DNA of 64,000 bases. Origin: Zunongwangia mangrovi (lineage in GTDB: Bacteria > Bacteroidota > Bacteroidia > Flavobacteriales > Flavobacteriaceae). The stretch spans positions 682,001 through 746,000 of the forward strand of contig NZ_FOKV01000001.1 of assembly GCF_900112105.1 (NCBI RefSeq), in the 5' to 3' direction. Under the pieces are notes generated by a model. That model was not told the DNA's origin. It worked only from the letters and a program-made list of their open reading frames with translations, and ran no database searches. The position numbers were made by a program, and so were the translations under genes. Of the stretch, positions 13,033 to 42,969 are shown piece after piece (position 1 is the stretch's first letter; each line of letters opens with the position of its first letter).

Positions 13033-13080
13033 AAGCTTTACGCTAATCGAGAGTTTAAATGCTCTTATAATTGAAAAATT

Positions 13081-13109
13081 AACGCTCCCGTTTTAAGGAG
13101 CGTTTTTTG
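13081..13109 (+). terminator. Rho-independent terminator after ileS-dksA-like operon
   Basis: Perfect 8-bp stem AACGCTCC/GGAGCGTT with an 8-base loop, followed by TTTTG. It ends 14 bp before the next ATG. Confidence 0.85.
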
Positions 13110-13122
13110 TTGTATAGATTAT

Positions 13123-23330: not shown

Positions 23331-24500
23331 ATGCCTTTTTATCATAAGTTAGGTGAGATTCCACATAAAAGACACACGATCTTCAAAAAACCAGACGGAA
23401 ACCTTTATTACGAACAGGTTTTTGGTACTATTGGTTTTGATGGAATGTCTTCGATATCTTACCATGAACAGCGACCTACGCAGGTTAAGGAAGTAAAAAA
23501 AAGTTATAGCGTAAAACCTGTAATTTCAAAAGAAAATAATTTAAAATCTTATCGTCTAAAGGGATTTCAGGTAAAGCCAGAACAGGATTATTTAGAAAGT
23601 AGAAAAGTTATTCTTACTAACAGTGATGTCGATATTATTCTGGCAGCGCCACAAAAATCTACCGATAATTATTTTTATAAGAATGCCGATAGTGATGAGC
23701 TTTTGTTTATTCATAAAGGAAGCGGGAAATTAAGAACGCATTTAGGGAATCTGGATTTTAAATACGGTGATTATTTGCTAATCCCGCGTGGTACGATCTA
23801 TAAAATTGATTTTGAAACTGAGGAAAACCGACTATTTATTGTTGAGTCCAAGCGCCCAATTTATACGCCTAAAAGGTATAGAAACTGGTTTGGGCAATTA
23901 TTGGAACATTCGCCATTTTGTGAACGCGATCTAAGGCAGCCTTACGAGTTAGAAACCAATAATGAAAAAGGCGATTTTTTAATCAAGATCAAAAAGCAGG
24001 GCGATATTTTTGATACGGTTTACGGCACACATCCATTCGATGTGGTGGGTTACGATGGTTATAACTATCCTTATGCGTTTTCAATTCACGATTTTGAACC
24101 TATTACAGGTAGAATTCACCAACCGCCACCGGTGCATCAAACTTTTGAAACCGATGCGTTTGTAGTTTGCAGTTTTTGTCCGCGTAAATACGACTATCAC
24201 CCAGAAAGTATTCCGGCGCCATACAGCCATAGTAATATCGATAGCGATGAGGTGCTTTATTATGTAGATGGCGATTTTATGAGCCGAAATGATATTGAAG
24301 CGGGACATATTTCGCTGCACCCGGCTGGAATTCCGCATGGGCCGCACCCGGGAGCAGTAGAACGAAGTATTGGTAAAACCGAAACTGAAGAATTAGCAGT
24401 AATGGTAGATACGTTTAAACCTCTGCAACTTACCGAAGATGCGATGGCCATTGCAGATAAAACTTATTATAGATCTTGGTTAGAAGACGAGGATAAATAA
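23331..24500 (+). CDS. hmgA: Homogentisate 1,2-dioxygenase
   Basis: 389 residues; opens the ring of homogentisate to maleylacetoacetate in tyrosine and phenylalanine breakdown. N-terminal IPHKRHTIFKKPDG and the two cupin-like halves fit the family. Candidate iron ligands lie in HSNIDSDEVLYYVDG (Glu) and HPAGIPHGPHPG (His). Shorter than the ~430-residue proteobacterial and human enzymes, as usual for the Bacteroidota form. Followed after 32 bp by hppD, which makes its substrate, so the pair is an operon. The later steps (isomerase, fumarylacetoacetase) are not in this window. Confidence 0.93.
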   Translation: MPFYHKLGEIPHKRHTIFKKPDGNLYYEQVFGTIGFDGMSSISYHEQRPTQVKEVKKSYSVKPVISKENNLKSYRLKGFQVKPEQDYLESRKVILTNSDVDIILAAPQKSTDNYFYKNADSDELLFIHKGSGKLRTHLGNLDFKYGDYLLIPRGTIYKIDFETEENRLFIVESKRPIYTPKRYRNWFGQLLEHSPFCERDLRQPYELETNNEKGDFLIKIKKQGDIFDTVYGTHPFDVVGYDGYNYPYAFSIHDFEPITGRIHQPPPVHQTFETDAFVVCSFCPRKYDYHPESIPAPYSHSNIDSDEVLYYVDGDFMSRNDIEAGHISLHPAGIPHGPHPGAVERSIGKTETEELAVMVDTFKPLQLTEDAMAIADKTYYRSWLEDEDK

Positions 24501-24532
24501 AAAACATTCAAAAACTAACGAATATTAAGATT

Positions 24533-25675
24533 ATGTCTAAAGATAATTCATCCTTACAATTAGAAAAAGTAATTCCTGAAGCAGAAGACTTTCTTCCCAT
24601 CTTGGGGACAGACTTTGTAGAGCTTTATGTAGGGAATGCAAAGCAGGCAGCATATTATTATCAGCATGCCTGGGGATTTCAGCCGGTTGCGTATTCGGGA
24701 TTGGAAACCGGAAGGAAGGATAGCGTATCCTATGTGTTGCAGCAGGGAAAAATCAGGATCGTACTTACTTCTCCATTAGAACCTTCCGGAGAAATAAATG
24801 CGCATATCGATAAACATGGTGACGGGGTAAAATTTGTGGCACTTTGGGTAGATGATGCAAAAAAAAGTTACGAGGAAACTACCAAAAGAGGTGCTGAAAG
24901 TTACGTAGAACCTTACGAGCTGGAAGATGAACATGGTAAAGTAGTGATCTCTGGAATTCATACTTATGGTGAAACCGTACATCTTTTTATTGAAAGAGGT
25001 GATTATCAAGGAGCTTTTATGCCGGGTTATAGAACTTATGCTCCGCTTGCAAAATCTCCAGAAACCGGGTTGAAGTATATCGACCACATGGTAGGCAATG
25101 TGGGTTGGGACGAGATGAATAGATGGTGCGAATTTTATGCAAAAGTGATGGGCTTTGCGCAAATGGTTTCATTTGACGATAAAGACATTTCTACAGATTA
25201 CACGGCTTTAATGAGTAAGGTGATGAGTAACGGGAATGGACGAATTAAATTTCCGATAAACGAACCTGCTGAAGGAAAAAAGAAATCACAGATCGAAGAA
25301 TATATTGATTTTTATAATGGTGCCGGGGTGCAACATATCGCTTTAGCTACAGATAATATTATCGAAACGGTAACCGCTTTACGTGATCGTGGGGTAGAAT
25401 TTTTATATGTTCCAGAAACCTATTATGATGATCTCTTAGATCGAGTTGGTGAGATCGATGAAGATCTAGAACCGCTAAAAGAGTTGGGAGTATTGGTAGA
25501 TCGTGATGATGAAGGTTATTTGTTACAGATATTTACCAAGCCTGTTTTAGATCGGCCAACCATGTTTTTTGAAATAATTCAAAGAAAAGGAGCGCAATCT
25601 TTTGGGAAAGGAAACTTTAAAGCCTTATTTGAAGCAATAGAAAGAGAGCAGGATTTGCGAGGAACGCTAAATTAA
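24533..25675 (+). CDS. hppD: 4-Hydroxyphenylpyruvate dioxygenase
   Basis: 380 residues; turns 4-hydroxyphenylpyruvate into homogentisate using Fe(II) and O2. Two vicinal-oxygen-chelate halves. The three iron ligands can be placed: His in YIDHMVGNVG, His in GVQHIALATDNI and Glu in TMFFEIIQRKG. The C-terminal GNFKALFEAIEREQ is the typical lid helix. Works directly with hmgA upstream. Confidence 0.97.
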   Translation: MSKDNSSLQLEKVIPEAEDFLPILGTDFVELYVGNAKQAAYYYQHAWGFQPVAYSGLETGRKDSVSYVLQQGKIRIVLTSPLEPSGEINAHIDKHGDGVKFVALWVDDAKKSYEETTKRGAESYVEPYELEDEHGKVVISGIHTYGETVHLFIERGDYQGAFMPGYRTYAPLAKSPETGLKYIDHMVGNVGWDEMNRWCEFYAKVMGFAQMVSFDDKDISTDYTALMSKVMSNGNGRIKFPINEPAEGKKKSQIEEYIDFYNGAGVQHIALATDNIIETVTALRDRGVEFLYVPETYYDDLLDRVGEIDEDLEPLKELGVLVDRDDEGYLLQIFTKPVLDRPTMFFEIIQRKGAQSFGKGNFKALFEAIEREQDLRGTLN

Positions 25676-25857
25676 TTTGAAATTTTTGATTTTTACTAAA
25701 ACAAAAAGCTTCTTTTTTATCTAAAAATCAATGTTTTAGTTAAAGTTTATTTTTGGCTTTTTTTAATTGGATTAAATGCAGAATTTTGCGCTCGCATTTT
25801 TGGAGTGGTTACCAAATTTGTTTTTTCATAATTTAAGTTTTAGTTGGTTAATAAGAC

Positions 25858-25894
25858 AAAAAACCTCGTCATTAATTTGATGGGGTTTTTTGTT
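25858..25894 (+). terminator. Terminator after hmgA-hppD, overlapping a promoter
   Basis: A 12-bp stem with two G-T pairs (AAAACCTCGTCA, 25860-25871, with TGATGGGGTTTT, 25878-25889), a 6-base loop and a TTTTTTG tail. The preceding 180 bp after hppD contain no gene. Confidence 0.75.
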
Positions 25895-25906
25895 TTGATA
25901 CATTTG
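25877..25906 (+). promoter_or_regulatory. Promoter of the DUF3108-TDO-M23 operon
   Basis: TTG (25877-25879), a 19-bp spacer and TACATTTG (25899-25906), an exact match to the Bacteroidota consensus. The -33 element lies in the loop of the upstream terminator. A start about 7 bp downstream gives a 5' leader of about 60 bases before the ATG at 25973. Confidence 0.6.
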
Positions 25907-25972
25907 GAATAGTAATTGTAAATCTACTTAAAAGATAGTCATTTAGGATGAAACTATTTCAAATTGAAACCA

Positions 25973-26749
25973 ATGGATAAAAGACTTACAATTACATTAA
26001 TTCTCTTCTTTTTTGCGCTTACTTCGCACGAAGCTCAAACCGCTTTTGATGCGGGAGAGTGGTTTAAATTCAGGATTCATTACGGGCCTTTTAATGCAAG
26101 CTATGCGACACTTCAGGTAAGTGAAGAATATTTAAATAGTAAGCCTGTTTATCATGTAGTAGGAAAAGGTAAATCTACCGGGATGCTACATTGGTTCTTT
26201 AAAGTGAATGATAATTACGAAACATATATCGATCGTAAATCTGGACATCCTTATAAATTTATACGTCAAATCGATGAAGGTGGGCACACCAAAGATCTAG
26301 AGATCGATTTTGATCATAAATCGAATACGGCCTATGTTCATGATAAAAAGCATAATAAGAAAAAGACCTATTCTACAAAGGAAAATATCCATGATATGTT
26401 GTCTGCATTTTACTATCTTCGCAGCAATATAAACGAAGAGGCGCTACAACCCGGCCACGAGCTAATCCTTAATCTTTTTATCGATGATGAAAACATGGAT
26501 TTTAAGGTGAAGTTTTTGGGTAGGGAAGTGATAAAAACCAAATTTGGAAAAGTAAATGCGCTTAAGTTTAGGCCTTATGTGATGGCTGGTAGAGTATTTA
26601 AAGAGAAGGAGAGCCTTACCTTTTGGGTAAGTGACGACAAAAATAAAGTTCCTTTAAAAATCGAAGCCGATCTTGCAGTAGGATCACTGGATGCCGATCT
26701 TGATGCTTACAAAGGTCTAAAATACCCCTTCAGGATTATCGTAGATTAG
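25973..26749 (+). CDS. DUF3108 domain-containing secreted protein
   Basis: 258 residues from the ATG at 25973 (an upstream TTG at 25964 is in frame but not needed). Signal peptide ends EAQTAF. The body matches DUF3108: FDAGEWFKFRIHYGPFNASYATLQV, VVGKGKSTGMLHWFFKVNDNY and the C-terminal WVSDDKNKVPLKIEADLAVGS. Probably a periplasmic beta-rich protein; the family's job is not established. One base separates it from the downstream dioxygenase gene. Confidence 0.88.
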   Translation: MDKRLTITLILFFFALTSHEAQTAFDAGEWFKFRIHYGPFNASYATLQVSEEYLNSKPVYHVVGKGKSTGMLHWFFKVNDNYETYIDRKSGHPYKFIRQIDEGGHTKDLEIDFDHKSNTAYVHDKKHNKKKTYSTKENIHDMLSAFYYLRSNINEEALQPGHELILNLFIDDENMDFKVKFLGREVIKTKFGKVNALKFRPYVMAGRVFKEKESLTFWVSDDKNKVPLKIEADLAVGSLDADLDAYKGLKYPFRIIVD

Positions 26750-26750
26750 C

Positions 26751-27710
26751 ATGGAAATTAAACCCGAAATAGCCGAGAGAATAGAATTGCTGGAAGAGAA
26801 ATTCAGAAATTCTGGTCAGGATATGGGTTCTTACCTTGATGGTCTTTTATACGACCGTTACTTAACTTATTGGGATTATATAAGTTTGGATACATTGCTG
26901 AGTTTGCAAAAACCAGAGACACATTTTCCAGACGAGGAAATTTTTCTAACCTATCACCAGATAACCGAGTTGTATTTTAAACTTATTATCCACGAGCAAA
27001 AGCAGGTGATCGAAAATCCTAATCTAACGGCTTCTTATTTTATTGAGAAATTAAATAGGATGATTCGTTATTTTAGAGTGCTTATCAATTCTTTTGATGT
27101 GATGATCAAGGGAATGGAGCGTGAGCAGTTCTTGAAATTTCGTATGGCTTTACTGCCTGCAAGCGGATTCCAATCGGCTCAGTTTAGAATGATAGAATTT
27201 TATTCGACTCCAATCGAAAATCTAGTAGAGCACAAGATCAGGAAGAATTTCAATTTAGATAATTCTGTAGAAGATTTATTTGATCATATTTACTGGAAAA
27301 AGGGTGGTATCGATCTTAAAACCGGTGAGAAAACTTTAACCCTTAAGCAATTCGAAAAAAGGTATACGTCCCGCTTTTTAAGGATTGCAAACGAGGTAAA
27401 AGGGAAAACACTTTATGGACGTTATCAAAGCCTGGCCGATTCAGAAAAAAACAATCCAAAATTAATTAGAGCATTACGTACTTTTGATAGTAGTGTAAAC
27501 GTTAACTGGTTGTTGATGCATATTGGTGCGGCATATAGGCACCTGGATAAAGGAAACAAAACGATAAAAGCAACCGGAGGAACAAACTGGAAAGAGTTTT
27601 TACCACCAGGATTTCAGAAAATATCTTTTTTTCCTGAATTGTGGAGTGAAGAAGAGCACGAAGAATGGGGCAAAGAATGGGTAAACCACATGTTTAATAC
27701 TGAAAAATAA
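26751..27710 (+). CDS. Tryptophan 2,3-dioxygenase family protein
   Basis: 319 residues. The all-helical, heme-binding family that opens the indole ring of tryptophan to N-formylkynurenine. Visible signatures: YDRYLTYWDYISLDTLL, TYHQITELYFKLIIHE (active-site region), FRMALLPASGFQSAQFR and the C-terminal WLLMHIGAAYRHL with ATGGTNWKEF, which resembles the GTGG loop and heme-ligand region. True TDO activity rather than a related role is likely but not certain. Adjacent to the tyrosine genes, so the region deals with aromatic amino acids. Confidence 0.9.
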   Translation: MEIKPEIAERIELLEEKFRNSGQDMGSYLDGLLYDRYLTYWDYISLDTLLSLQKPETHFPDEEIFLTYHQITELYFKLIIHEQKQVIENPNLTASYFIEKLNRMIRYFRVLINSFDVMIKGMEREQFLKFRMALLPASGFQSAQFRMIEFYSTPIENLVEHKIRKNFNLDNSVEDLFDHIYWKKGGIDLKTGEKTLTLKQFEKRYTSRFLRIANEVKGKTLYGRYQSLADSEKNNPKLIRALRTFDSSVNVNWLLMHIGAAYRHLDKGNKTIKATGGTNWKEFLPPGFQKISFFPELWSEEEHEEWGKEWVNHMFNTEK

Positions 27711-31024: not shown

Positions 31025-33637
31025 ATGAGGAAATTATTAGCTTTAGCGTTGTTTTTTGCAACGGCTACAATTTTTGCTCAGGGGACTGTTACCGGTACGG
31101 TAATAGATTCTGAAATGAATGGCCCGCTACCGGGAGCAAACGTAATGGTAGTAGGTTCTAGAACTGGTACTACAACAGATTTTGATGGAAATTTTTCATT
31201 AGAAGTGGATGGCTCTTCAGGAACTTTAGAAATTACTTTTGTAGGTTTCAAAAGCAAGAGAGTACAGTTCAATTTTTCAGGAAATTCTCAAGATCTGGGA
31301 GAAATTGTGTTAGTAGGTGATGACAATGCTTTAGATGAAATTGTAATTACCAGCTTTTCTTTGGCAATCGATAGAAAGACACCAGTTGCTGTTTCTACAA
31401 TTAAAGGGGAAGAAATTGAGATGAAGTTAGGAAACCAGGAATTTCCTGAAATCCTTAACACAACTCCAGGTGTTTACGCAACAAAATCTGGTGGAGGTTT
31501 TGGTGATGCTGAACTAAGAATGAGAGGTTTTGGATCTACGAATATTGCTGTAATGATAAACGGTGTTCCAGTAAACGACATGGAAAACGGTCGTGTTTAT
31601 TGGAGTAACTGGGCGGGACTTTCTGATGTGACTCGTACAATGCAGGTTCAAAGAGGTCTTGGTGCAGCAAAAGTTGCCGTACCTTCTATTGGAGGTACTG
31701 TAAATATTGTTACAAAAACTACAGATATTGAAAGAGGAGGCAACATTATAGCTTCAACTGGAAACGATGGTTATCAAAAATTTGGCGCTACCGTTTCTAC
31801 TGGTAAAACAGAAAACGGTTGGGCAACTACAGTATCGGCTTCCAAAACTACAGGAGAGAGATTCGCTGATGGTCTACAATTCGAAGGTTACAACTATTTT
31901 CTTAGTGTAGCGAAGGAGATTAATGAAAATCATGAATTATCTTTTACGATGTTTGGTGCACCACAGCGTCATGGGCAAAGAGAAACTCAATATTCTATCG
32001 AAGATTATGAAAGAAGTGATCGAGGTATTAAATTCAATGGTGATTGGGGATATAGAAATGGAGAAGTAGTAAATATTCAAGACAACTACTACCATAAGCC
32101 ACAGATATCTTTAAATCATTATTGGGATATTAACGATAAAACAGAATTGTCGACTGCAGCTTATGTTTCTTTTGGAACAGGAGGTGGTGGTGGATATACT
32201 GGTGATGCTAATCTAAGAAGCGTAAACTCGCCATATAGAAGCGCACCATATCAACCAATTAATTTAGATCTTGTAGTTGATGAAAATGTCGCTAATGGAA
32301 TAGACGGATCAGGTACTATACTTTACAATTCAGTAAATAATCACAATTGGTATGGTGTTCTTTCAACCTTATCAACAGAACTTACTGAAGATTTAGAATT
32401 GATGGGAGGAATAGATCTAAGGTATTATGAAGGAAAGCATTATCAGGAAGTAAAAGATCTATTAGGAGGTCAGTACTGGGCTGATGGAGGAAACATAAAC
32501 AATCCTACTAATCTTGCAAGAACAGGTGATAAAATCAATTATTATAACGATGGAATCGTTTTATGGGAAGGATTATTTGCACAGGCAGAATATTCTAAGG
32601 ACGATTTTTCAGCGTTTCTATCTCTATCAGGATCAAATACATCCTACAAAAGAATAGATTACTTCACTTATGAAGATTCAGACCCTATTCAGGAAACAGA
32701 TTTTGAAAGTTATATTGGGTTTATGACTAAAGGTGGAGCAAATTATAATATTGATGATAATCATAACATCTTTGCAAATGTTGGGTATTTTGAGCGAGCT
32801 CCAGATTTTGATGCCGTATTTCCAAATAATGAAAATATTGTAAACTCTGAAGCCGAAAATGAAAAGATATTTAGTGTGGAAGCTGGATATGGTTTTAGAA
32901 GCTCTAATTTAAGAATCGATCTAAACCTTTATAGAACCCAATGGTTAGACAGAACCCAAGTACAATCTATTGTTGTAAGAGGTGATGAAGAAGGAGAAGA
33001 AGATCAACAATATTTTGGAAACCTACTAGGTGTGGATGCTCTTCACCAAGGTGTTGAATTAGAATTTGAGTATAAGCCATGGGAAGTTTTAACCGTTAAT
33101 GGTATGTTCTCGTATGGAGACTGGAGATGGAGTAATGATATTACAAATGTGCAGTTCTTTGATGAAGAACAAGCACCTGTGGGTGAGCCAGTAGATCTTT
33201 TTATTGAAGATACTCCTGTTGGTAATCAACCTCAAACATCATTAGCTCTGGGTCTTAATGCTGAAGTATTCCCTGGGACTTTTGTACGTGGAAATTTCAA
33301 TTATTTCTCAAGAATGTATGCGCAATATGATCCGTCTTCTAGAAATGATGATGAAGTGGAATTTACAGATCCATGGGAGGCTCCAGATTACGGTGTTTTT
33401 GATTTAGGTTTTACACACAAGTTTGCTTTTGGTTCTTTTGATGCAACAATAAATGCCAATGTTTACAATGTGTTGGATACAGAGTATATTTCTGATGTAA
33501 CTGATGGTACTCGAAGAGACCAATTTGAAGGTCCTGATGGACAAACCAGAACAAGATTAGTTTCAAATGCTCAAGATGCATCGGTATATTATGGTTTTGG
33601 TCGTACATATACCGTAGGAATGAAGATTAATTTCTAA
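31025..33637 (+). CDS. TonB-dependent receptor (NGR-WSNW subfamily), first nuclease module
   Basis: 870 residues: signal peptide (ending TIFAQ), carboxypeptidase-regulatory-like domain (about 20-100, VTGTVIDSEMNGPLPGANV), plug (about 115-240) with FPEILNTTPGVYATKSGGG and the segment INGVPVNDMENGRVYWSNW, then a 22-strand-type barrel ending in a Phe (YTVGMKINF). The receptor imports a bound ligand using TonB-ExbBD energy. The WSNW segment is shared with the receptor at 38780. A lipoprotein gene follows 10 bp later and an endonuclease after that, so nucleic-acid fragments are a reasonable ligand, by inference only. Confidence 0.92.
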   Translation: MRKLLALALFFATATIFAQGTVTGTVIDSEMNGPLPGANVMVVGSRTGTTTDFDGNFSLEVDGSSGTLEITFVGFKSKRVQFNFSGNSQDLGEIVLVGDDNALDEIVITSFSLAIDRKTPVAVSTIKGEEIEMKLGNQEFPEILNTTPGVYATKSGGGFGDAELRMRGFGSTNIAVMINGVPVNDMENGRVYWSNWAGLSDVTRTMQVQRGLGAAKVAVPSIGGTVNIVTKTTDIERGGNIIASTGNDGYQKFGATVSTGKTENGWATTVSASKTTGERFADGLQFEGYNYFLSVAKEINENHELSFTMFGAPQRHGQRETQYSIEDYERSDRGIKFNGDWGYRNGEVVNIQDNYYHKPQISLNHYWDINDKTELSTAAYVSFGTGGGGGYTGDANLRSVNSPYRSAPYQPINLDLVVDENVANGIDGSGTILYNSVNNHNWYGVLSTLSTELTEDLELMGGIDLRYYEGKHYQEVKDLLGGQYWADGGNINNPTNLARTGDKINYYNDGIVLWEGLFAQAEYSKDDFSAFLSLSGSNTSYKRIDYFTYEDSDPIQETDFESYIGFMTKGGANYNIDDNHNIFANVGYFERAPDFDAVFPNNENIVNSEAENEKIFSVEAGYGFRSSNLRIDLNLYRTQWLDRTQVQSIVVRGDEEGEEDQQYFGNLLGVDALHQGVELEFEYKPWEVLTVNGMFSYGDWRWSNDITNVQFFDEEQAPVGEPVDLFIEDTPVGNQPQTSLALGLNAEVFPGTFVRGNFNYFSRMYAQYDPSSRNDDEVEFTDPWEAPDYGVFDLGFTHKFAFGSFDATINANVYNVLDTEYISDVTDGTRRDQFEGPDGQTRTRLVSNAQDASVYYGFGRTYTVGMKINF

Positions 33638-33647
33638 AAAAATACAA

Positions 33648-35360
33648 ATGAAAAAATTATATATTTTAACCGCTTTATTAGGGAGTATACTTTATTCGTG
33701 CGACCCTACGGATAATCTTCAGGATATTGCAAATGAAGAAATCGACAATAGTCTTACCGAAGGAGAAGCTAATTATACTTTAACCGAGGATGATTATGAA
33801 GAAGTTGGATTTAATATTGAATCAGGTTTTGATAATTATGAGCAAGCTGAGGAATTAATTCCTGTTGTTTTAGATAACGCATTCCCATTGTATCAAAACG
33901 GTACCTCAATAATAACAACATTTAACGTAGAAGATCCATTGTTACCTGTGGAATATACTGTAAGTGAAGACGATTATACTGCAATAGGTAACCAAAATGG
34001 ATATTTTAGCTCTACATCGCAAGTACAATCTTTTCTAGAGAGTCAATTTGAAGCAGCTCAAAACGGAGACTTAGTGGAGTTAACATATAATACGGTAGCT
34101 AACGAAATAGCTTATGAGTTAAGTTCTGAAGATTTTGATCTTTTAGAAGAAGAATTGGGCGAAACTTATCCGAATGCCGCAAGCAGTGCAGCAAACTATA
34201 GTAATTTCGATAGACGTGAAACTAATGATGCTTACTGGAGTAATGATATGATTTTAGAAGCCATCAATGTAATTTTAAATGATGCTTTTGATGGGGTAGA
34301 GGGTCAGCGATATAATGTAAGCTATGATATTTATGACGGGAGTGCAGGTACAGAAAGCATGACTGTTGAATTTAATGGTAATAGTTATGTGCCTGTAGGA
34401 GGTGCTTCTTACGAACTTGATAATGCTGACTATGCACTAGCAAGAACGGAATTAGCAGATACTTACCCTGGTCCTGCAAATAATTTATCTTACAACAGTT
34501 TCAACATAGATGAAGGATCATCAAATTACTGGAGTGAGGAAATGATAGTTGAAGCCTTGAATATAATCTTAGGTGAAAATTTCACGGATGTAACAGAAGG
34601 TAGCCAGTTTGAAGTTAGTTATACTATTTATAATGGCAGTAATACAGCTCCAGAATCTTTATCTCTAATTTTTGAGGATGGAGAGTTCGTAATAAATAAC
34701 GAGCCAACCCCTATATCAACTATTGAAACTACAGTAATGTATGCTTACACGGGAAGCTCTTGGAATATGCCTTTATCCTTGTCTACTGAGGACTACGCTG
34801 AAATGGGACAGAGTTACCCTAACTTTGATGATGAATCAGAAGCTTTTTACAACATAGGTATATATTTAGATAATCTTTACACGTATCCTCCAAATGGTAG
34901 TTCCGCTGTTGTGTCTTACCAATTTTATGATGGTAGTACTAATACTAGATATTCATTATTTACATTGCAAGATGGTGAATGGATTGGTGTACCTCGAGTA
35001 ATCGAGACTACGTTACAGTTTGCAAAAACTGATGGTATTTGGGTTCCAGACAATACTATTTCATACTTCTTGACAGGTTCAGATTATAGTACGGTAGCTG
35101 AGGCATTAGTGGATCAATATCCAGATCCGGTTTCAAGTATGGCTCGCTATAGCAATTTTGATAGAAGGAATGGTAATGCTGCTTATTGGAGTGACGATAT
35201 GATAATCGAAGCTATGCGTATTGTGTTGAATAGTATCGATCCAGATGCTGAAGTAGGACAGCAATACGATATTACTTACGATGTTTACAATGGTTCTAAC
35301 GTAACTGAAACTATCAGCCTAATCAAGAATGAAGCTGGAGAGTGGGTTATTAATGAATAA
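33648..35360 (+). CDS. Surface lipoprotein with six internal repeats
   Basis: 570 residues; lipobox LYSC at 15-18. I do not recognise a named family. The mature part is made of a repeating unit that begins Y-x-L-x-x-x-D-Y and ends V-S-Y-x-I-Y-x-G-S; copies start near residues 43, 103, 156, 255, 377 and 473. The copies at 156, 255 and 473 are long and contain YSNFDRR (or a variant) and YW-S-x-x-MI-x-EA. Strongly acidic. It takes the place that a SusD-like partner holds beside other TonB receptors, and may bind ligand at the cell surface. Confidence 0.8.
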   Translation: MKKLYILTALLGSILYSCDPTDNLQDIANEEIDNSLTEGEANYTLTEDDYEEVGFNIESGFDNYEQAEELIPVVLDNAFPLYQNGTSIITTFNVEDPLLPVEYTVSEDDYTAIGNQNGYFSSTSQVQSFLESQFEAAQNGDLVELTYNTVANEIAYELSSEDFDLLEEELGETYPNAASSAANYSNFDRRETNDAYWSNDMILEAINVILNDAFDGVEGQRYNVSYDIYDGSAGTESMTVEFNGNSYVPVGGASYELDNADYALARTELADTYPGPANNLSYNSFNIDEGSSNYWSEEMIVEALNIILGENFTDVTEGSQFEVSYTIYNGSNTAPESLSLIFEDGEFVINNEPTPISTIETTVMYAYTGSSWNMPLSLSTEDYAEMGQSYPNFDDESEAFYNIGIYLDNLYTYPPNGSSAVVSYQFYDGSTNTRYSLFTLQDGEWIGVPRVIETTLQFAKTDGIWVPDNTISYFLTGSDYSTVAEALVDQYPDPVSSMARYSNFDRRNGNAAYWSDDMIIEAMRIVLNSIDPDAEVGQQYDITYDVYNGSNVTETISLIKNEAGEWVINE

Positions 35361-35381
35361 GCTCTTTTCTTAGAATATTTT

Positions 35382-35418
35382 AAAACCTTCTGCCACTACG
35401 TAGAAGGTTTTATTTTTT
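35382..35418 (+). terminator. Terminator between the repeat lipoprotein and the endonuclease gene
   Basis: Perfect 10-bp stem AAAACCTTCT/AGAAGGTTTT (35382-35391 and 35402-35411) with a T-rich tail. It implies that the endonuclease has its own promoter or depends on read-through. Confidence 0.8.
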
Positions 35419-35481
35419 TAAGCCTTTTTATTTAAGATATTTGTACGACAAGAATCAAATTAGAATATAAATCAAGAATTA

Positions 35482-37128
35482 ATGAAAAAGAATTTCTTTT
35501 TTGCATTCCTTTTAGGAAGTTTCTTCCTTGGATGTAGCAGTGATGATAGTGCTCCAGAGGAGCCCGAGGTACCTGTGGAACAGGAGCCTGTTGCAGTAGA
35601 TGATAATTTTAGCACAATAGAAAATGTTGAAGTTACAATATCAGTCAATCAATTGCTGAATAATGATGAAATTGTAGACAATGCTCGAATTTTTTCTGTA
35701 GATGAAGAATCTCTTGAAGGTGGGAGTATAGAAAACAACCGAAATGGAACATATACTTATACTCCACCTGCAGACTTTCAGGGAGAAGATTCTTTTATGT
35801 ATTTACTTTGTGTTCCTGGGGATTCAGATCGATGTTCAGAAGCTACAGTGACTATTCAGGTAGATCAGCCTGGGCCACCAACAGCTAATGATGATAATTA
35901 TGAAGTTGCAGAAGATGGAACTTTAACAATTCGTAATTACGGTGGGAATGATGACCTAATTGGAGATGCTTCTATCACTGAGGTTGAATCTTCAAGTGGA
36001 AATGCAACTGTGAGTATTGATAGTGAAAACAATATTGTATACGTTCCTAACGAAGGCTTTGCAGGATCAGACACATTCACCTATACCATCTGTAACGATG
36101 ATGAAGAAACCTCTTGTGATACTGCAACTATTACAATTGAGGTAATCGATGAAGGTAATCCTTATGCTGAAGATGATGAAGTGATTGCAAACGGCAATAA
36201 TGCAGAAACAATCTTTGCAGACCTCCTTGCTAATGATAATTTAATCGATGGTGCTACGCTTAATGGTGTAGATGATTCGTCTAGCAAAGGAACCGTAACA
36301 CTTAATGAAGATGGTACAGTAACTTATGTTACGGCAGCTGGTTTTACAGGAGAAGATACTTTTGAATATACGATTTGTGATGACGATCAGCCAGAAGCTT
36401 CCTGTAGCACCGCTACGGTAACTGTTCAGGTTGTAACCCCGATTTCCTTCAATATTCCGGCAGATCTACAGGATTACTACGACGGTGTTACTTTTACAGA
36501 TCAATCAGATTTCTTAAAACTAGCGCTTTCAAACTTTACAGTAGCTGCGCACGAAACGATCTTAGCGTATACAGATCGTCACGATTATCTTTACGAAGCC
36601 GATGAAGATCCGGATAATCCAGATAACGTTCTTTTAATGTACTCTGGTGAAAGTAGATATTGGGAAGAATATACTTCAGGAAGCAATTCTTATTCACCGC
36701 AAACTTTCAATACAGAGCATATTTATCCGCAATCTAGATTAGGATCAGAAGATGCAGTCACAGATTTACATCACTTAAGAACCATAGATGACGGTATAAA
36801 TAGCGATAGATCGAACTATTCTTTCACAGACGGAAGTGGAGATTATGGGTTAGTTGGCAATAATGCTTGGTACCCTGGAGACGATTGGAAAGGTGATGTA
36901 GCCAGAATGATATTCTACCTTAATATTCGTTACGGAGAAAATATCTCGACGGTTGGTGACTTAGATCTTTTTCTTCAGTGGAATAGAGAAGACCCGGTTT
37001 CAGCATTCGAAATACAACGAAATAATGTGATCGAAGCTGCCCAGGGAGTAAGAAACCCGTTTATCGATAATCCATATCTTGCAACACTTATTTGGGGTGG
37101 CAGTGATGCTGAAAATCGATGGGAATAA
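35482..37128 (+). CDS. Surface endonuclease I lipoprotein with Ig-like repeats
   Basis: 548 residues. Lipoprotein signal ending FFLGC followed by SSDD, a pattern linked to surface export of lipoproteins in Flavobacteriia. Three Ig/cadherin-like repeats (about 38-310), each ending in a V-T-I-Q-V-type strand and containing GTYTYTP or similar. The C-terminal domain (about 320-548) is endonuclease I: NTEHIYPQSRLG and TDLHHLRTIDDGINSDR form the beta-beta-alpha-metal active site. Degrades DNA or RNA outside the cell. The Ig-like part probably holds the enzyme away from the membrane. Placed directly after the receptor and repeat lipoprotein. Confidence 0.9.
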   Translation: MKKNFFFAFLLGSFFLGCSSDDSAPEEPEVPVEQEPVAVDDNFSTIENVEVTISVNQLLNNDEIVDNARIFSVDEESLEGGSIENNRNGTYTYTPPADFQGEDSFMYLLCVPGDSDRCSEATVTIQVDQPGPPTANDDNYEVAEDGTLTIRNYGGNDDLIGDASITEVESSSGNATVSIDSENNIVYVPNEGFAGSDTFTYTICNDDEETSCDTATITIEVIDEGNPYAEDDEVIANGNNAETIFADLLANDNLIDGATLNGVDDSSSKGTVTLNEDGTVTYVTAAGFTGEDTFEYTICDDDQPEASCSTATVTVQVVTPISFNIPADLQDYYDGVTFTDQSDFLKLALSNFTVAAHETILAYTDRHDYLYEADEDPDNPDNVLLMYSGESRYWEEYTSGSNSYSPQTFNTEHIYPQSRLGSEDAVTDLHHLRTIDDGINSDRSNYSFTDGSGDYGLVGNNAWYPGDDWKGDVARMIFYLNIRYGENISTVGDLDLFLQWNREDPVSAFEIQRNNVIEAAQGVRNPFIDNPYLATLIWGGSDAENRWE

Positions 37129-37154
37129 CCTATTTTTGTAAAAAAAAGATAATT

Positions 37155-37595
37155 ATGTACCAAACTGTTCAATTTATACATTCTTACTGGGCTTATTTAG
37201 TGATAGCCATGTTGGTAATCGCATCTGTTAGTGCTATTATTGGTTGGGTATCTGGTAAAGAATATAGTGCCGGTAATTTTAGAATTTCCCTATTTACACT
37301 TATCGTTTCTCACATTCAGCTTTTGATAGGAATTGTATTGTTTTTTGTTTCAGATAAAACAGTATGGTTTAATGATCAAGTTTCTGTAAGTGAAATTATG
37401 GGTGACGATACGTTAAGATTGTATAATATGGAACATCCTCTTATGATGATCATCGCTATTGTTTTGATCACCGTAGGATATTCAAAGCACAAAAAGAAAT
37501 TAACCTCTACTCCAAAATTTAAAACGCTGGCGATATTTTATACGATTGCTTTGGTGGTACTTCTTTCCAGAATTCCTTGGAATGCATGGCTATAA
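37155..37595 (+). CDS. Small membrane protein, cytochrome-B-like
   Basis: 146 residues from the ATG at 37155 (an upstream in-frame start at 37119 overlaps the endonuclease gene and is rejected). Four hydrophobic segments, with His in the first (VQFIHSYWAYLV), second (LIVSHIQLLIG) and third (NMEHPLMMII), the spacing expected of a heme-binding or quinone-type small membrane protein; related Flavobacteriaceae proteins are labelled cytochrome B. Real function unknown. Confidence 0.7.
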   Translation: MYQTVQFIHSYWAYLVIAMLVIASVSAIIGWVSGKEYSAGNFRISLFTLIVSHIQLLIGIVLFFVSDKTVWFNDQVSVSEIMGDDTLRLYNMEHPLMMIIAIVLITVGYSKHKKKLTSTPKFKTLAIFYTIALVVLLSRIPWNAWL

Positions 37596-37613
37596 AAAAT
37601 AGTCTTCAAAATA

Positions 37614-37646
37614 TCGAAAATCCCCGTTTTTAGCGGGGATTTTTCT
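37614..37646. terminator. Bidirectional terminator between convergent genes
   Basis: 10-bp stem AAAATCCCCG/CGGGGATTTT (37617-37626 and 37634-37643) with T-runs in both directions. It overlaps the last codons of the minus-strand nuclease gene, whose C-terminus is therefore encoded by the hairpin. Confidence 0.85.
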
Positions 37647-38664
37647 TTTTTATAAGATAAAGATATACCGGGAAATGATCGCTATAACCGCCCAAATAGC
37701 CATTATATCCATAACTTCGGAAGGGATATCCTTTATACTGCCCATTTGAAGTGATTAAATAGTCTTTTTTAAAAATTCCGGCTTTGTAATATTGAAAATA
37801 ATCATAATTTTTAGTCATCATAGCGCCTGAAACAAGGATTTGATCAAACAAATTCCAATTATCGCGATAAGCCAAACTTCCAATGCCATTTTTATACAAT
37901 TTCAGCATAGGATTATAAAACTGAAATTGATTCGCCTTTTCTGAAGTTTTAAGCACATTCTTCACATTTTTGTTTTTAGGATCATCATTAAAATCCCCCA
38001 TATTTACGATCTTGAAAGAAGAATCTATTGCCCAAAGCGAATCGCAAATTTTTCTGTTTACCATTGCAGCAGATTTTCGGTAATTTCGGCTTGCTTTTTC
38101 ACCACCACTTCTGGATGGCCAGTGGTTAATTAAAAATGCAAAGTTTTCATTTTCAATTTTTCCTGTAGCCACCACAATATCCCTGGTGTAAATTCTTTTT
38201 CCTTCCTTATTCTGAATAAAAACAGTAATAGCTTTCGATGTTTTCGGTTGAAACACCTTAGGATTATAGAATAGGGCATTATCAATACCTCGGCGATCAG
38301 GCGAATCAAAATGAATAATTTCGTAATTCTTATCTTTCAATTGTTCTGTATTCAAAAGATCTTCAAGTACACGGTAATTTTCGATTTCGCTTAAGCCGAT
38401 AATTTCAGGACTATTGCCTGATAGATCAACTCCAATTTCCGAAATTACCTGGCCGATATTGTTTAATTTCTGAAGGTATTTTTCTTCCGTCCACGCATCT
38501 TTTCCTTCAGGAGTACGATCATCATCGAAAGTAAAATCGTCATTTTCAGTATCAAAAAGATTCTCGGTATTATAAAATGCGATCGTCAAAACCTCGTACG
38601 TAGTTTGATTTTGCGCAAATCCAATTCCGCAGTAAAAAAGAAAAATTAGTTGTAAGATTTTCAT
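37630..38664 (-). CDS. Secreted endonuclease/exonuclease/phosphatase family protein
   Basis: 344 residues with a signal peptide ending CGIGFAQ. Catalytic elements of the EEP fold: FYNTENLFD, a metal-binding Glu in GLSEIENYRVLE, NHWPSRSGG, GDFNDDP and the C-terminal catalytic YSDHFPVYL. Likely cuts extracellular or periplasmic nucleic acid or phosphoesters. Divergent from the second receptor gene with a 115-bp gap containing the Pho-box-like repeats, so both may respond to one signal. Confidence 0.9.
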   Translation of the reverse strand: MKILQLIFLFYCGIGFAQNQTTYEVLTIAFYNTENLFDTENDDFTFDDDRTPEGKDAWTEEKYLQKLNNIGQVISEIGVDLSGNSPEIIGLSEIENYRVLEDLLNTEQLKDKNYEIIHFDSPDRRGIDNALFYNPKVFQPKTSKAITVFIQNKEGKRIYTRDIVVATGKIENENFAFLINHWPSRSGGEKASRNYRKSAAMVNRKICDSLWAIDSSFKIVNMGDFNDDPKNKNVKNVLKTSEKANQFQFYNPMLKLYKNGIGSLAYRDNWNLFDQILVSGAMMTKNYDYFQYYKAGIFKKDYLITSNGQYKGYPFRSYGYNGYLGGYSDHFPVYLYLIKKKNPR

Positions 38665-38674
38665 TATCAGAATC

Positions 38675-38703
38675 TTAAAATTGTTGTGAGTTTGCGTTAA
38701 AGT
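38675..38703 (+). promoter_or_regulatory. Pho-box-like repeats between the nuclease and second receptor genes
   Basis: TTAAAAT (38675-38681) and TTAAAGT (38697-38703) lie exactly 22 bp apart, two turns of an 11-bp period; the middle position (38686, GTGAGTT) is degenerate. CGTTAAAGTT (38695-38704) is identical to the site before the first receptor. The site is 11 bp from the nuclease start and 76 bp from the receptor start. Confidence 0.45.
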
Positions 38704-38779
38704 TATCCTATTCTTTCGGATAAAATAAACGGTTTCGAATGCTATTTTCTAAATTGAAGCTGTAATTTATTGATTTTCA

Positions 38780-41599
38780 ATGAAAAGTGTAGTTTTTATT
38801 TGGGTGATTTCTATTTCCTCTGGTCTTTTGCAGGCGCAGGAAATCATTATATCCGGAAAAATACTACATGCTAATTCTCAAAATGTTATTGGTGGCGTTA
38901 GTGTTCGTTTAGAAGATCATTTTACGGAGACTAAAACTAATACCGAGGGAATTTTCATACTCAGTTTTACAGATCTCGAAATGGGAAATTATATTTTAAA
39001 TATTTCAAAACTTGGTTTTCAGTCATTACGATTGCCTATTCTTCTAGATCGATCAACTTTAGATTTGGGTGTGATTAGCCTAACTCCCGATATTGCTGAA
39101 CAGCAGGCCCAATTAGGAAGCGTAAATCTTAGTGAAAATGAGTTGGATGACGATCAAATCGATGCCGGTTTTTCCTCGATTTTAAATGCTGGGAAGGATG
39201 CTTTTTTAAATGCTGCCGCGTACGATTTTAGTCAGACCTATTTTAAACCTCGTGGTTATGATAGTCAGTACGGTCTGGTAATGATTAACGGAATTCCGCT
39301 GAATAAAATCAATAATGGCCGGCCGCAATGGAGTAACTGGGGTGGTTTAAATGATGTGCAGCGCAATCAGGATTTTAATTTCGCGGTAAGCGCTGTAGAT
39401 AAGAACTTCGGAAGTCTTGCCGGTTCTACCAATTTCGTGATGCGTGCTTCAAAATTCTCTAAAGGTGGCAGGCTTACTTTATCGGCTGCCAATAGAAGTT
39501 ATCGCTCCAGGATCATGGCCACGTATAGTTCAGGAGAATTAAAAAATAATTGGTTTTATACCGTTTCGCTCTCCGGAAGATTTGCTGAAGAAGGCTATAT
39601 GGAAGGTACTTCATACAACGCGAAATCAGCTTTTCTTTCCGTAGAAAAAAAGATAAATGAAGATCATAGTTTAAATTTTGCGGCAATTTATACGCCTAAT
39701 ATTCGTGGAAAATCGGCAGCGATCACCGATGAAGTTTTTGAACTAAAAGGAAGAAAATATAATAGTTACTGGGGATATCAGGGAGATCAAATCAGGAATT
39801 CCCGTCAAAGACGAGTAGAAGAGCCTATCTTGATGCTGAATCATTTTTGGGAACTCTCAAAAGACACCCAAATAACAACCAATATCGCTTATCAATTTGG
39901 GAGTATTGGGAATACCAGGATCGATTATGGTGGTACAAATTTAGTTCGGTTTAACGATCAGGTTTCTTACGATGGTGGTGGCCAAAATCCAGATCCTTCT
40001 TATTATCAAAATTTACCGAGTTATTTTTTACGATTTGAAGGGAGTGAAAATTATGAGGCCGCTTACCGAAGCGCCGCTGCATTTCGGGAAAATGGACAAT
40101 TAAACTGGGATGCGATCTATGAAGCTAATAGAACTGAAGCCAATGCCGGAAATAACGCCGTTTATGCTTTAACCGAAGATCGTAATGATGATCGTTCGGT
40201 TTTTCTAAATACGACTTTCGATCATCAGCTAAATTCAAATTTGAAGCTAAATGACGGAATTAATTTTCAGCAGCTAAAAAGCCATAATTATGCAAAAATC
40301 GATGATCTTTTTGGTGGAAATCAATTTCTGGATATCGATTTTTTCGCTGAACCAACCAATGATTTTTCATTAGAACAGGTGGCGCAAAGTGATTTGCAAA
40401 ACCCAAATCGGCTGGTGGGTGAAAATGAGATTTACAAGTATAACTATGATCTAAATTCAACGAAATTTGAAGCTTTTTCTCAGCTTGAATTTATCGCTAA
40501 AAATATCGAAACTTACCTTTCAGCAAAGATCAGCTCTACAAATTATGATAGGTTTGGTAATTATCAAAATGGTTTATTTCCTGATAATTCACTAGGGCAA
40601 AGTGCAACATTACATTTTACAGATTTTGGCTTAAAAACAGGTATAACTTATCATTTTACGGGTAGACATTCTATTTCTTCCAATTTATTTCTAGCCAGTA
40701 ATCCGCCAACTTTGCAAAACAGTTTCGCAAATCCACGACAAAATAAAACGCTGGTTCAGGATTTAGATAGTGAACAAATTTATAGCGCAGATGCCACGTA
40801 TCGCTATCGTTCGCCGAATTTCAATTTAAAAATTAGCGGCTATTTTACACAATTTAGAAATGTAACCGATGTCTCTTTTTATTATGTTGACGGACTTTCG
40901 GGCCTTGGCAGAAATACAACCACTGCTTTTGTTCAGGAGATTTTATACGATGCCGAAAAGCAGCATTTGGGTATTGAATTTGGTGCTGAAGCGCAGGTAA
41001 CTTCCACGATCAAATTAAAGTCGGCTTTAGCGCTTGGCCAATTTATCTTTTCCAATAATCCCAATTTGTATTTAACCAGCAATAGTTTTGCTGGCAATGT
41101 GAATTACGGGGAAACTCGACTGAAGAATTACCGGCTCGCCAACGGGCCGCAGCATGCGGCACAACTAGGTTTTGAATACCGTGATCCCGATTATTGGTGG
41201 TTTGGTTTAACGGCAAACTATTTTGCAAACGTGTTTATTAATGTGAGTCCGTTACTGCGAACTTCAAATTTCGCTACAGATACCGATGGATTGCCTTTAG
41301 AAAATTATGATGCGCAACTTGCCAGGGAATATCTAAAACAAGAGAATTTAGGCGATTATTTTTTGCTGAATGCCATTGGAGGGAAATCCTGGAAACTGGG
41401 AGATTATTATGTTGGGCTTTTTGTTAGCCTGAATAATATCTTGGATCAGCTTTACAAAACCGGCGGTTACGAACAATCCAGAAATGCCAATTTTACCAGT
41501 TTGCAGGAAGATCGCGAACGTGAAATGCCTGTTTTTGGTAATCGCTATTGGTACGGTTACGGCACCACTTATTTTGCTAATCTATATGTTCGGTTTTAA
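38780..41599 (+). CDS. TonB-dependent receptor (NGR-WSNW subfamily), second nuclease module
   Basis: 939 residues: signal peptide (ending GLLQAQ), carboxypeptidase-regulatory-like domain (about 20-105, ISGKILHANSQNVIGGVSV), plug (about 130-230) containing INGIPLNKINNGRPQWSNW, which lines up with the receptor at 31025, and a barrel ending YFANLYVRF. The barrel start also matches (LSVEKKINEDHSLNF). Companion of a DUF5689 lipoprotein gene 1 bp downstream and a divergent nuclease. Ligand unknown; nucleic-acid-derived ligand inferred. Confidence 0.92.
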   Translation: MKSVVFIWVISISSGLLQAQEIIISGKILHANSQNVIGGVSVRLEDHFTETKTNTEGIFILSFTDLEMGNYILNISKLGFQSLRLPILLDRSTLDLGVISLTPDIAEQQAQLGSVNLSENELDDDQIDAGFSSILNAGKDAFLNAAAYDFSQTYFKPRGYDSQYGLVMINGIPLNKINNGRPQWSNWGGLNDVQRNQDFNFAVSAVDKNFGSLAGSTNFVMRASKFSKGGRLTLSAANRSYRSRIMATYSSGELKNNWFYTVSLSGRFAEEGYMEGTSYNAKSAFLSVEKKINEDHSLNFAAIYTPNIRGKSAAITDEVFELKGRKYNSYWGYQGDQIRNSRQRRVEEPILMLNHFWELSKDTQITTNIAYQFGSIGNTRIDYGGTNLVRFNDQVSYDGGGQNPDPSYYQNLPSYFLRFEGSENYEAAYRSAAAFRENGQLNWDAIYEANRTEANAGNNAVYALTEDRNDDRSVFLNTTFDHQLNSNLKLNDGINFQQLKSHNYAKIDDLFGGNQFLDIDFFAEPTNDFSLEQVAQSDLQNPNRLVGENEIYKYNYDLNSTKFEAFSQLEFIAKNIETYLSAKISSTNYDRFGNYQNGLFPDNSLGQSATLHFTDFGLKTGITYHFTGRHSISSNLFLASNPPTLQNSFANPRQNKTLVQDLDSEQIYSADATYRYRSPNFNLKISGYFTQFRNVTDVSFYYVDGLSGLGRNTTTAFVQEILYDAEKQHLGIEFGAEAQVTSTIKLKSALALGQFIFSNNPNLYLTSNSFAGNVNYGETRLKNYRLANGPQHAAQLGFEYRDPDYWWFGLTANYFANVFINVSPLLRTSNFATDTDGLPLENYDAQLAREYLKQENLGDYFLLNAIGGKSWKLGDYYVGLFVSLNNILDQLYKTGGYEQSRNANFTSLQEDREREMPVFGNRYWYGYGTTYFANLYVRF

Positions 41600-41600
41600 A

Positions 41601-42969
41601 ATGAAGAAATTTGTACTCCTTTTAATTCTTGTTTTAATAAGTTGTGTGACGACAGATGATTTTAATGTGCCCAGAAACTCAGGTTCCGGCAAATGTGAGC
41701 ATAGAAGGCACGCAAATTAGTCTGAGGGCCGCAAAGAATAATTATGATGAAGAAACCGGCGATATATTTACATTTTCGGGTGATCAATATTTTGAGGCTT
41801 ATGTGGTTTCTTCAGATAGGGCAGGTAATTTTTATAATGAATTGATCCTTCAGGATCTTCCAGGAAATCCGGAAGCGGGGATACAAATTTTAATTGATGA
41901 AAATGCCCTTTATCAGCGCTATAACTTCGGAAGAAAAGTTTTCGTGAAATTAAACGGATTGAGTATTTCTAAGAGCAATGGTTTAATTCAGTTGGGAAAA
42001 CAGAATAGGGGAGATCTTGATCCTATAACACCTTCAGAAATTGATGAATATCTGGTTCGTTCAGAAATTATAGAAGAGATCACTCCGCAGCAAATCGATA
42101 TTGGTGATTTTTCACCTGAATTTTTATCTACATATATTCAGTTAGATAATATTCAATTCAATCGAAATTTGTTTACCCAAACAAACAGCACTTTTGCTGC
42201 TGAAACTTACGATCAATTTGATGGTTTTCGTCAGATCGAAGAATGTGGCAGCGATGATTCGGCTTTACTAGCCACCAGCACCTATGCCGATTTTAGGTCG
42301 GTTAATTTGCCGGCGACCTCAGGTACGATATTGGGCGTTTTAGGACGTGATTTTTATGATGACTTTTATGTGGTTCAACTAAATTCAACCGAAGATCTTT
42401 CTTTTGGAAGTGAGCGATGTGACCCCGAGTTTTTTGACTGCGGAAATAATACTGAAGAAGGCGACACGATTTTGTTTGAAGAAAACTTTGCTGAAATCAC
42501 CAACGAGAATCGATTAGATCCTTTAGGTTGGACGAACCTGAATGTAAACGGTGGCGAAGAGCGATTTGTTGATGCTACCTCCAACGGAAACAGAACACTT
42601 AGAATCTCAGCTTACAATACCGGGGAAAATCCTTTAGAAGCCTGGCTGATAACGCCGCCCATAGATCTTTCGCAAACTCGAAATGAGGTTTTGTCTTTTG
42701 ATATTCGAGCGTCTTACGATAATGGTACTATTTTGCAGGTGTATATTAGCGAAGATTTTAATGGTGATCCAGAAACTGCAAACTGGCAATTACTCGAGGC
42801 TAATATTCCCATGGGACCATCGAATCAAAATGCTACGATCTTCAGGAATTCAAAAATCGATATTTCCTGTTTTACTGCTCAAGTTTATATTGGTTTTCGA
42901 TACCAGGGAAGAGATCCGTCACGAACCACAACTTATGATATTGATAACATAAAAGTCACAGCTGAATAA
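41601..42969 (+). pseudogene. DUF5689 / choice-of-anchor J surface lipoprotein, frameshifted near its start
   Basis: The lipoprotein signal (MKKFVLLLILVLISCVTTDD) starts at 41601, one base after the receptor stop, but the rest of the protein is in the next frame. The break is at CCC (41670-41672): removing one C joins FNVP to ETQVPANVSIEGTQ and gives a full 455-residue protein. After the break come a DUF5689 domain (about 40-270) and a C-terminal jelly-roll choice-of-anchor-J domain (AWLITPPIDLSQT, VYIGFRYQG). As written the gene would give a 39-residue peptide. A sequencing error, a real mutation or a phase-variable tract are all possible. Confidence 0.85.

What the first reader, a model, noticed from the sequence alone, without database searches (positions are those of the whole stretch)
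31025..42969. Two parallel receptor-lipoprotein-nuclease modules: a candidate system for using extracellular nucleic acid
Module 1: receptor, six-repeat lipoprotein, Ig-endonuclease I lipoprotein. Module 2: secreted EEP nuclease, receptor, DUF5689 lipoprotein. The receptors share an NGR-x-x-WSNW plug segment not present in the receptor at 5906, so they form one subfamily. Each is paired with a secreted nuclease and a surface lipoprotein, in the way SusC/SusD pairs are joined to glycan enzymes. I infer uptake of DNA or RNA fragments, mainly for phosphorus.
Basis: inference. Interest (0 to 1): 0.75.

Follow-up and report, generated by a model that had tools for sequence, protein, structure and literature searches.

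The report
DNA-uptake receptor locus of flavobacteria
Half of this locus matches the outer-membrane receptor and lipoprotein that a related bacterium needs to take up DNA for natural transformation, and it usually sits beside a gene for a DNA-cutting type of enzyme that may be the missing entry nuclease.

Summary
The genes are as described, with one correction: the DUF5689 lipoprotein gene (41601-42969) is frame-shifted in this assembly. Module 2 (EEP nuclease < > receptor 2 > DUF5689) is the syntenic orthologue of Riemerella anatipestifer RA0C_RS04915/RS04920, both published as essential for natural transformation. Receptor 2 occurs in 55 of 60 sampled genera of the family and in other orders of the class. 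DUF5689 lies within 3 kb in 54 of 55 family loci and a PF19580 EEP gene within 5 kb in 49 of 55; in other orders 18 and 15 of 20, with gene order rearranged in several. Receptor 2 and DUF5689 are missing together (5 of 5 genomes tested), receptor 2 occurs almost only with comEC, and DUF5689 is also found fused to nuclease domains. I read module 2 as the outer-membrane DNA importer of natural transformation, with the EEP protein as candidate entry nuclease (untested). Module 1 is loosely connected: its receptor is a separate clade, mostly beside pgi, with endonuclease I in 7 of 45. Phosphorus nutrition is second best, not excluded. WSNW is specific to these two receptors but absent from many receptor 2 proteins.

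The parts
37630..38664 (-). EEP (endonuclease/exonuclease/phosphatase, PF19580) protein, 344 aa, Sec-type signal peptide by eye, no lipobox and no type IX secretion tail found; likely periplasmic; candidate entry nuclease
   Evidence: Pfam PF19580 381 bits, match over residues 27-339 of 344. N32, E93, H181, D224, N226, D329 and H330 are invariant in 50 of 50 receptor-2-linked homologues; that these are the catalytic residues is recalled. Lipobox-like sequence in 2 of 50 homologues.
38780..41599 (+). Receptor 2, 939 aa TonB-dependent-receptor-like outer-membrane protein with N-terminal CarbopepD_reg_2 domain; orthologue of R. anatipestifer RA0C_RS04915
   Evidence: 35% identity over 53-939, E 4.8e-142, to G060:C22; receptor 2 clade 100/100 including Riemerella; orthologue read in 55 of 60 genera
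41601..42969 (+). DUF5689 lipoprotein gene (orthologue of RA0C_RS04920), frame-shifted in this assembly: signal peptide and lipobox in the frame of 41601, DUF5689 plus choice-of-anchor J domain in the frame of 41656
   Evidence: intact copies exist in the relatives
31025..33637 (+). Receptor 1, 870 aa TonB-dependent receptor; separate clade, mostly next to pgi; substrate unknown
33648..35360 (+). Lipoprotein with six irregular repeats, no Pfam match up to E 0.01; a homologue beside receptor 1 in 17 of 45
35482..37128 (+). Lipoprotein with three Big_9 stretches and an Endonuclease_1 domain; a homologue beside receptor 1 in 7 of 45
37119..37595 (+). 158-aa membrane protein by eye (hydrophobic stretches), recurrent in this gene cluster (43 phmmer hits in the 83 stretches examined); role unknown
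35381..35412 (+). terminator-like hairpin between the repeat lipoprotein and the endonuclease I gene
38665..38779 (.). 115-bp intergenic stretch shared by the divergent EEP and receptor 2 genes

Best explanation
Module 2 is the outer-membrane DNA-import unit of Riemerella-type natural transformation. DNA binds the surface lipoprotein with the DUF5689 domain and passes through receptor 2, probably powered by TonB. It is trimmed or made single-stranded in the periplasm by the divergently encoded EEP nuclease, and ComEC carries the strand inward. Published for the Riemerella genes: receptor and DUF5689 lipoprotein are each essential for transformation. Shown here: orthology, synteny, conservation of the three genes, joint absence of receptor 2 and DUF5689, association with comEC, and DUF5689-nuclease fusions. 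Inferred: that DNA itself passes the receptor, that the EEP protein is the entry nuclease, and that the same holds in the window's organism, where the DUF5689 gene is frame-shifted in the assembly and the pathway may be off. Module 1 is a neighbour of unknown substrate.
For: R. anatipestifer carries EEP(-)/receptor 2(+)/DUF5689(+) in the same arrangement, on the contig that also holds comEC and recA (read by eye). DUF5689 occurs once in that genome, at this place, and scores 590.8 bits against NF052645 (cut-off 475), so it should be RA0C_RS04920, the paper's DUF5689 protein. Markerless deletion of RS04915 or of RS04920 brings transformation from 5.4e-5 to below detection (PMC8459023). tonB mutants are impaired (PMC8383284). 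Receptor 2 is one clade, 100/100. EEP within 5 kb in 49 of 55, 15 of 17 and 15 of 20 loci (family, order, class); DUF5689 within 3 kb in 54 of 55, 16 of 17 and 18 of 20; in several distant loci position and strand differ, yet the genes stay near. In 16 chosen genomes DUF5689 is missing in 5 of 5 without receptor 2 and present in 11 of 11 with it. comEC is present in 78 of 79 order genomes with receptor 2, against 69 of 167 without; in 60 genera the absences coincide, [[53,2],[2,3]], Fisher p=0.003. DUF5689 is fused to an EEP-type domain (L188) and to a PLD nuclease domain (L176).
Against: The window's own DUF5689 gene is frame-shifted. EEP is not strictly tied to receptor 2: G004 lacks receptor 2 but keeps a strong EEP match, and four receptor-2-positive family genomes (G016, G023, G035, G057) have EEP elsewhere, in G057 about 14 kb off. 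Three order or class loci have receptor 2 without a recognised DUF5689 nearby (L149, L170, L177), and DUF5689 also occurs in other proteins and in the B. subtilis control. Two receptor-2-negative genera keep comEC (G032, G046), and 69 comEC-positive genomes of the order lack a receptor 2 at E 1e-60. The Fisher tests ignore shared ancestry. F. johnsoniae has the homologues but was not transformable under the conditions tried (PMC8459023). The sections I read list no mutant of the EEP gene. One of the two tonB effects is put down to iron. No usable structure was obtained.
Confidence: 0.68

Rival explanations
1. Nutritional use of extracellular DNA or RNA: surface nucleases cut nucleic acid, receptors import fragments for phosphorus, nitrogen and nucleosides; transformation is a by-product.
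For: Nucleases with a type IX secretion tail (PLD, EEP, endonuclease I) lie near receptor 2 in some other orders; an endonuclease I gene lies beside receptor 1 in 7 of 45; in Riemerella comEC and dprA transcripts rise without phosphate (PMC8383284).
Against: The conserved EEP of the window has no type IX tail and 48 of 50 homologues have no lipobox-like sequence, so it looks periplasmic rather than a surface digester; association with comEC; the only mutant phenotype I found in print is loss of transformation; phosphate removal lowers transformation.
Confidence: 0.2
2. Receptor 2 imports another nutrient or signal, and the transformation defect of its mutants is indirect.
For: Iron, phosphate and peptone supply change transformation in Riemerella (PMC8383284); no TonB-dependent receptor is known to me to carry DNA (recalled); G048 and G055, incomplete genomes without a comEC match, hold receptor 2.
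Against: Loss is complete, below detection as for comEC, dprA and recA insertions, and holds for two adjacent genes deleted separately; DUF5689 is recurrently fused with or beside nucleases.
Confidence: 0.12

Closest known systems
Natural transformation genes RA0C_RS04915 and RA0C_RS04920 of Riemerella anatipestifer (PMC8459023; abstract, passages, Results sections 18-20 and Discussion read)
   Same: Orthologous receptor and DUF5689 lipoprotein, same order; comEC in the genome
   Different: In what I read the paper does not mention the EEP neighbour and reports RS04915 homologues only in Flavobacteriaceae. Here the EEP gene is a conserved neighbour and receptor 2 reaches other orders. The window copy of DUF5689 is frame-shifted.
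SusC/SusD glycan importers
   Same: TonB-dependent receptor plus surface lipoprotein encoded downstream
   Different: Receptor 1 scores 106.6 bits against TIGR04056 (cut-off 368) and receptor 2 has no hit; no SusD family match in the lipoproteins up to E 0.01
ExeM/NucH-type extracellular DNases
   Same: The Riemerella EEP protein has a weak match (21.8 bits, cut-off 300); a DUF5689-EEP fusion with a type IX tail exists in G057
   Different: Here the domains are separate proteins, with a receptor encoded between them

Membership tests
Riemerella-type transformation uptake pair | receptor orthologous to RA0C_RS04915 | tested here: met
   locus tags were not seen on the sequence, the identity rests on the unique DUF5689 neighbour, comEC and recA nearby and domain annotation
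Riemerella-type transformation uptake pair | DUF5689 lipoprotein directly downstream | tested here: met
   gene present, but frame-shifted in this assembly
Riemerella-type transformation uptake pair | comEC in the same genome | tested here: met
   G000:C25:50885-51685, open frame of 677 aa
Riemerella-type transformation uptake pair | required for natural transformation in this organism | not testable with these tools
   needs mutants
Riemerella-type transformation uptake pair | HHH periplasmic protein and DUF1343 protein (RS02645, RS09020) in the genome | not tested
SusC/SusD nutrient importer | receptor above the TIGR04056 cut-off | tested here: not met
SusC/SusD nutrient importer | SusD-family lipoprotein | tested here: not met
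Phosphorus-scavenging nuclease system | induced by phosphate limitation, growth on DNA | not testable with these tools
   needs experiments
EEP nuclease (PF19580) | family match and conserved EEP residues | tested here: met
   that the residues are catalytic is recalled

The most novel reading that the evidence does not exclude
A TonB-powered receptor, an outer-membrane DUF5689 lipoprotein and a periplasmic EEP nuclease form a DNA importer found across the class, in which the nuclease converts incoming double-stranded DNA to the single strand taken by ComEC. It would be the first TonB-dependent transporter for DNA (as far as I recall) and the missing entry nuclease of Bacteroidota transformation.
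Probability: 0.38. Interest if true: 0.85.

Novelty: new member of a known kind. Interest (0 to 1): 0.6.

Why it matters
How DNA crosses the outer membrane in these bacteria, and which nuclease prepares it for ComEC, is open: the Riemerella authors call their model speculative and the nuclease unidentified (PMC8459023). A conserved three-gene unit names a candidate for each step and makes both testable by gene removal. It would also mean that the genes for this kind of DNA uptake reach well beyond the family in which they were described.

Tried and rejected
Fold prediction of the DUF5689 domain from the single window sequence failed (mean pLDDT 31.7), so the OB-fold that its sequence suggests to me is recall and untested. 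Profile search of DUF5689 against solved structures gave nothing up to E 1, and the 11 Pfam families listed for its 16 homologues hold none that I know as an OB-fold. The EEP protein has no meaningful match among solved structures (one at E 0.51). A pattern scan of viral contigs with receptor 2 confirmed no relative. WSNW as a sufficient subfamily marker was rejected for lack of sensitivity. Receptor 1 as half of the same system was rejected as unproved. Iterated profiles seemed to mix receptor 1 with receptor 2 and were set aside for single-pass and cleaner-profile labels. My first comEC table was mistyped; the right one is. Paper searches for nutritional DNA use with such receptors found nothing. 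DUF5689 is named in one paper of the library, and a search for nuclease work in Riemerella competence listed five papers, none on this EEP gene by title or abstract start. Twelve further papers holding the word M949_1556 were seen in the listing only.
Full report
What is there. The window lies in a 4.13-Mb draft genome of 32 contigs. Terminator-like hairpins after pgi (30679), after the repeat lipoprotein (35381) and between the converging 158-aa membrane-protein and EEP genes (37616) suggest the units receptor 1-repeat lipoprotein, endonuclease I-membrane protein, EEP, and receptor 2-DUF5689. Ten such sites were found with 6.5 expected from shuffles, so only the three with 13-pair stems carry weight. 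The DUF5689 gene is frame-shifted against its own signal peptide; intact copies exist in relatives. I cannot tell a real mutation from an assembly error.

The WSNW segment. As a codon pattern it has two places in the own genome and 36 places in 30 of 60 family genomes; by coordinates all 36 lie in receptor 1 or receptor 2. But 45 of 95 receptor 2 proteins lack even a loose form of it (two of them are fragments), the Riemerella one included, while 50 of 51 receptor 1 proteins have it.

The known relative. A text search for DUF5689 led to one paper: in Riemerella anatipestifer the adjacent genes RA0C_RS04915 and RA0C_RS04920 (DUF5689) are each essential for natural transformation in markerless mutants, below a detection limit near 4.2e-10 against 5.4e-5 (PMC8459023). 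The authors propose a speculative model: RS04920 binds DNA, RS04915 carries it through the outer membrane, an unidentified protein makes it single-stranded, and ComEC takes it in. With a comEC primer from a second paper (PMC8383284; abstract, passages and section 19 read) I fetched the R. anatipestifer contig. It holds recA and comEC (by eye) and then EEP(-), receptor 2(+, 935 aa) and DUF5689(+, 469 aa), the arrangement of module 2, with a 248-nt gap between EEP and receptor. That genome has one DUF5689 match, here. It scores above the cut-off of the NCBI family lipo_M949_1556; the window protein scores 184.7 bits, below the cut-off of 475. That these are RS04915 and RS04920 rests on the unique DUF5689, the nearby comEC and recA and the domain annotation; I did not see the locus tags on the sequence.

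How widespread. In 60 genera of the family (own genome included) I read receptor 2 orthologues from the table in 55; missing in G004, G030, G032, G046 and G052. In G021 the gene is split in two ORFs, and in G058 and G037 it is cut by contig ends. In 55 family loci EEP lies within 5 kb in 49 (48 of them divergent within 300 nt) and DUF5689 within 3 kb in 54; the one without, L120, ends at a contig edge there. Of the six without EEP, L101 and L111 end at a contig edge upstream of the receptor, and another contig of G037 (L130) shows EEP next to a short end-of-contig receptor 2 match (37 bits). The other four (G016, G023, G035, G057) hold a PF19580 gene elsewhere. In the order, 79 of 246 genomes have receptor 2 at E up to 1e-60. 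I fetched 20 stretches, of which 17 hold receptor 2 and three are receptor 1 loci; 15 of the 17 have EEP (not L150, L163) and 16 have DUF5689 (not L149). In the class, 70 of 149 genomes have matches at E up to 1e-30, but I count only 28 over 350 bits, 23 of these outside the order. I fetched 20 of those 23 (not G414, G401, G337); 15 have EEP within 5 kb and 18 have DUF5689 within 3 kb. In several of these the order and strand of the genes differ while they stay together, which argues for a functional tie rather than inherited order alone; some of the distances are inflated by spurious ORFs in GC-rich loci. PF19580 matches number 0 to 3 per genome in 16 chosen genomes, so chance nearness should be rare. 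Of 21 receptor 1 proteins without receptor 2 in reach, 2 have EEP: L123, where tblastn finds what looks like a stub of the receptor 2 N-terminus beside it, and L141, where the contig ends in it. Four control receptor loci show no EEP, DUF5689 or endonuclease I label.

Co-inheritance. In 16 chosen genomes DUF5689 is absent in all 5 without receptor 2 and present in all 11 with it, Riemerella included. comEC in the 60 genera: 55 have it; 53 have both, 2 receptor 2 only (G048 and G055, 82 and 86% complete), 2 comEC only, 3 neither; Fisher p = 0.003. In the order comEC is in 147 of 246: 78 of 79 with receptor 2 (the exception, G089, is 68% complete) and 69 of 167 without. These tests ignore shared ancestry and reduced genomes. 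EEP is less tightly tied: G004 and G032 keep it without receptor 2. DUF5689 is not confined to this locus: second copies occur in G053 and G057, and the controls B. subtilis and Bacteroides ihuae match.

Domain evidence for DNA. The receptor-2-linked EEP proteins keep N32, E93, H181, D224, N226, D329 and H330 in 50 of 50. Their role in metal binding and catalysis is recalled from the EEP fold and was not tested. They carry Sec-type N-termini by eye, the window protein has no type IX tail, and 2 of 50 have a lipobox-like sequence, so the periplasm is their likeliest place. The DUF5689 proteins show a lipobox in 66 of 73 by pattern, the window frame being one of the seven without. One protein of G057 joins DUF5689, an Exo_endo_phos domain and a type IX tail; one of G366 joins DUF5689, a PLD nuclease domain and a tail. 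Near receptor 2 in other orders lie further nucleases with such tails. DUF5689 is thus a recurrent partner of nucleases.

Module 1. In a tree of 43 receptors, receptor 2 (23 rows) is one clade, 100/100, and the 14 true receptor 1 proteins another, 100/100; five weakly similar receptors that I had labelled receptor 1 fall outside, on long branches, so the label as such needs two changes. Riemerella has its own receptor 1 with no EEP or endonuclease I match in its 20-kb stretch. Of 45 receptor 1 proteins in 44 family loci, 36 have pgi within 1.5 kb, 17 the repeat lipoprotein and 7 endonuclease I. Endonuclease I matches exist in 36 of 60 genomes, so 7 placements beside receptor 1 exceed chance by my estimate but are far from general. 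I do not assign a substrate to module 1.

Mechanism, with what is shown and what is inferred. Published: need for receptor and lipoprotein in transformation, and for TonB in part (one of the two tonB effects is put down to iron). Inferred here: surface binding by the DUF5689 lipoprotein, passage through the receptor, EEP as the nuclease that the authors leave open, and ComEC as next step. The nutritional reading remains possible, and the two may coexist.

Novelty. The receptor-lipoprotein pair and its role are known from Riemerella, so the window locus is a new member of a known kind. New, as far as my searches show, are the conserved EEP partner, the spread beyond the family, the joint absence and the nuclease fusions. 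The library lacks most subscription papers.

Noticed in passing
41601-41720: Frameshift separates the lipoprotein signal peptide from the DUF5689 domain; real or assembly error unknown.
   Followed up: partly
L123 (G032) 12267-13689: Open EEP gene beside what looks like a stub of the receptor 2 N-terminus; receptor 2 and DUF5689 not found in this genome while comEC is.
   Followed up: partly
L087 (G021); G216:C19:401297-404102: Receptor 2 appears broken in two other genomes (split ORF; stops inside).
   Followed up: no
L070 (G003): Tandem duplication of receptor 2-DUF5689 with one EEP.
   Followed up: no
L116 3406-6639 and ORFs of 1077-1103 aa in L078, L092, L103, L118: A different, longer receptor-like protein (L116 read by eye; the others judged by length and place only) occupies the receptor 1 slot before the small membrane protein.
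   Followed up: no
L066 15211-19413: 1400-aa ORF downstream of DUF5689 in R. anatipestifer that looks like Cas9 by its N-terminus (recalled, not tested).
   Followed up: no
23331-27710: Genes matching homogentisate dioxygenase, HPPD/glyoxalase and tryptophan dioxygenase families upstream of pgi.
   Followed up: no
L107 (G043) 7264-8358: Endonuclease I with type IX tail placed between EEP and receptor 2.
   Followed up: no
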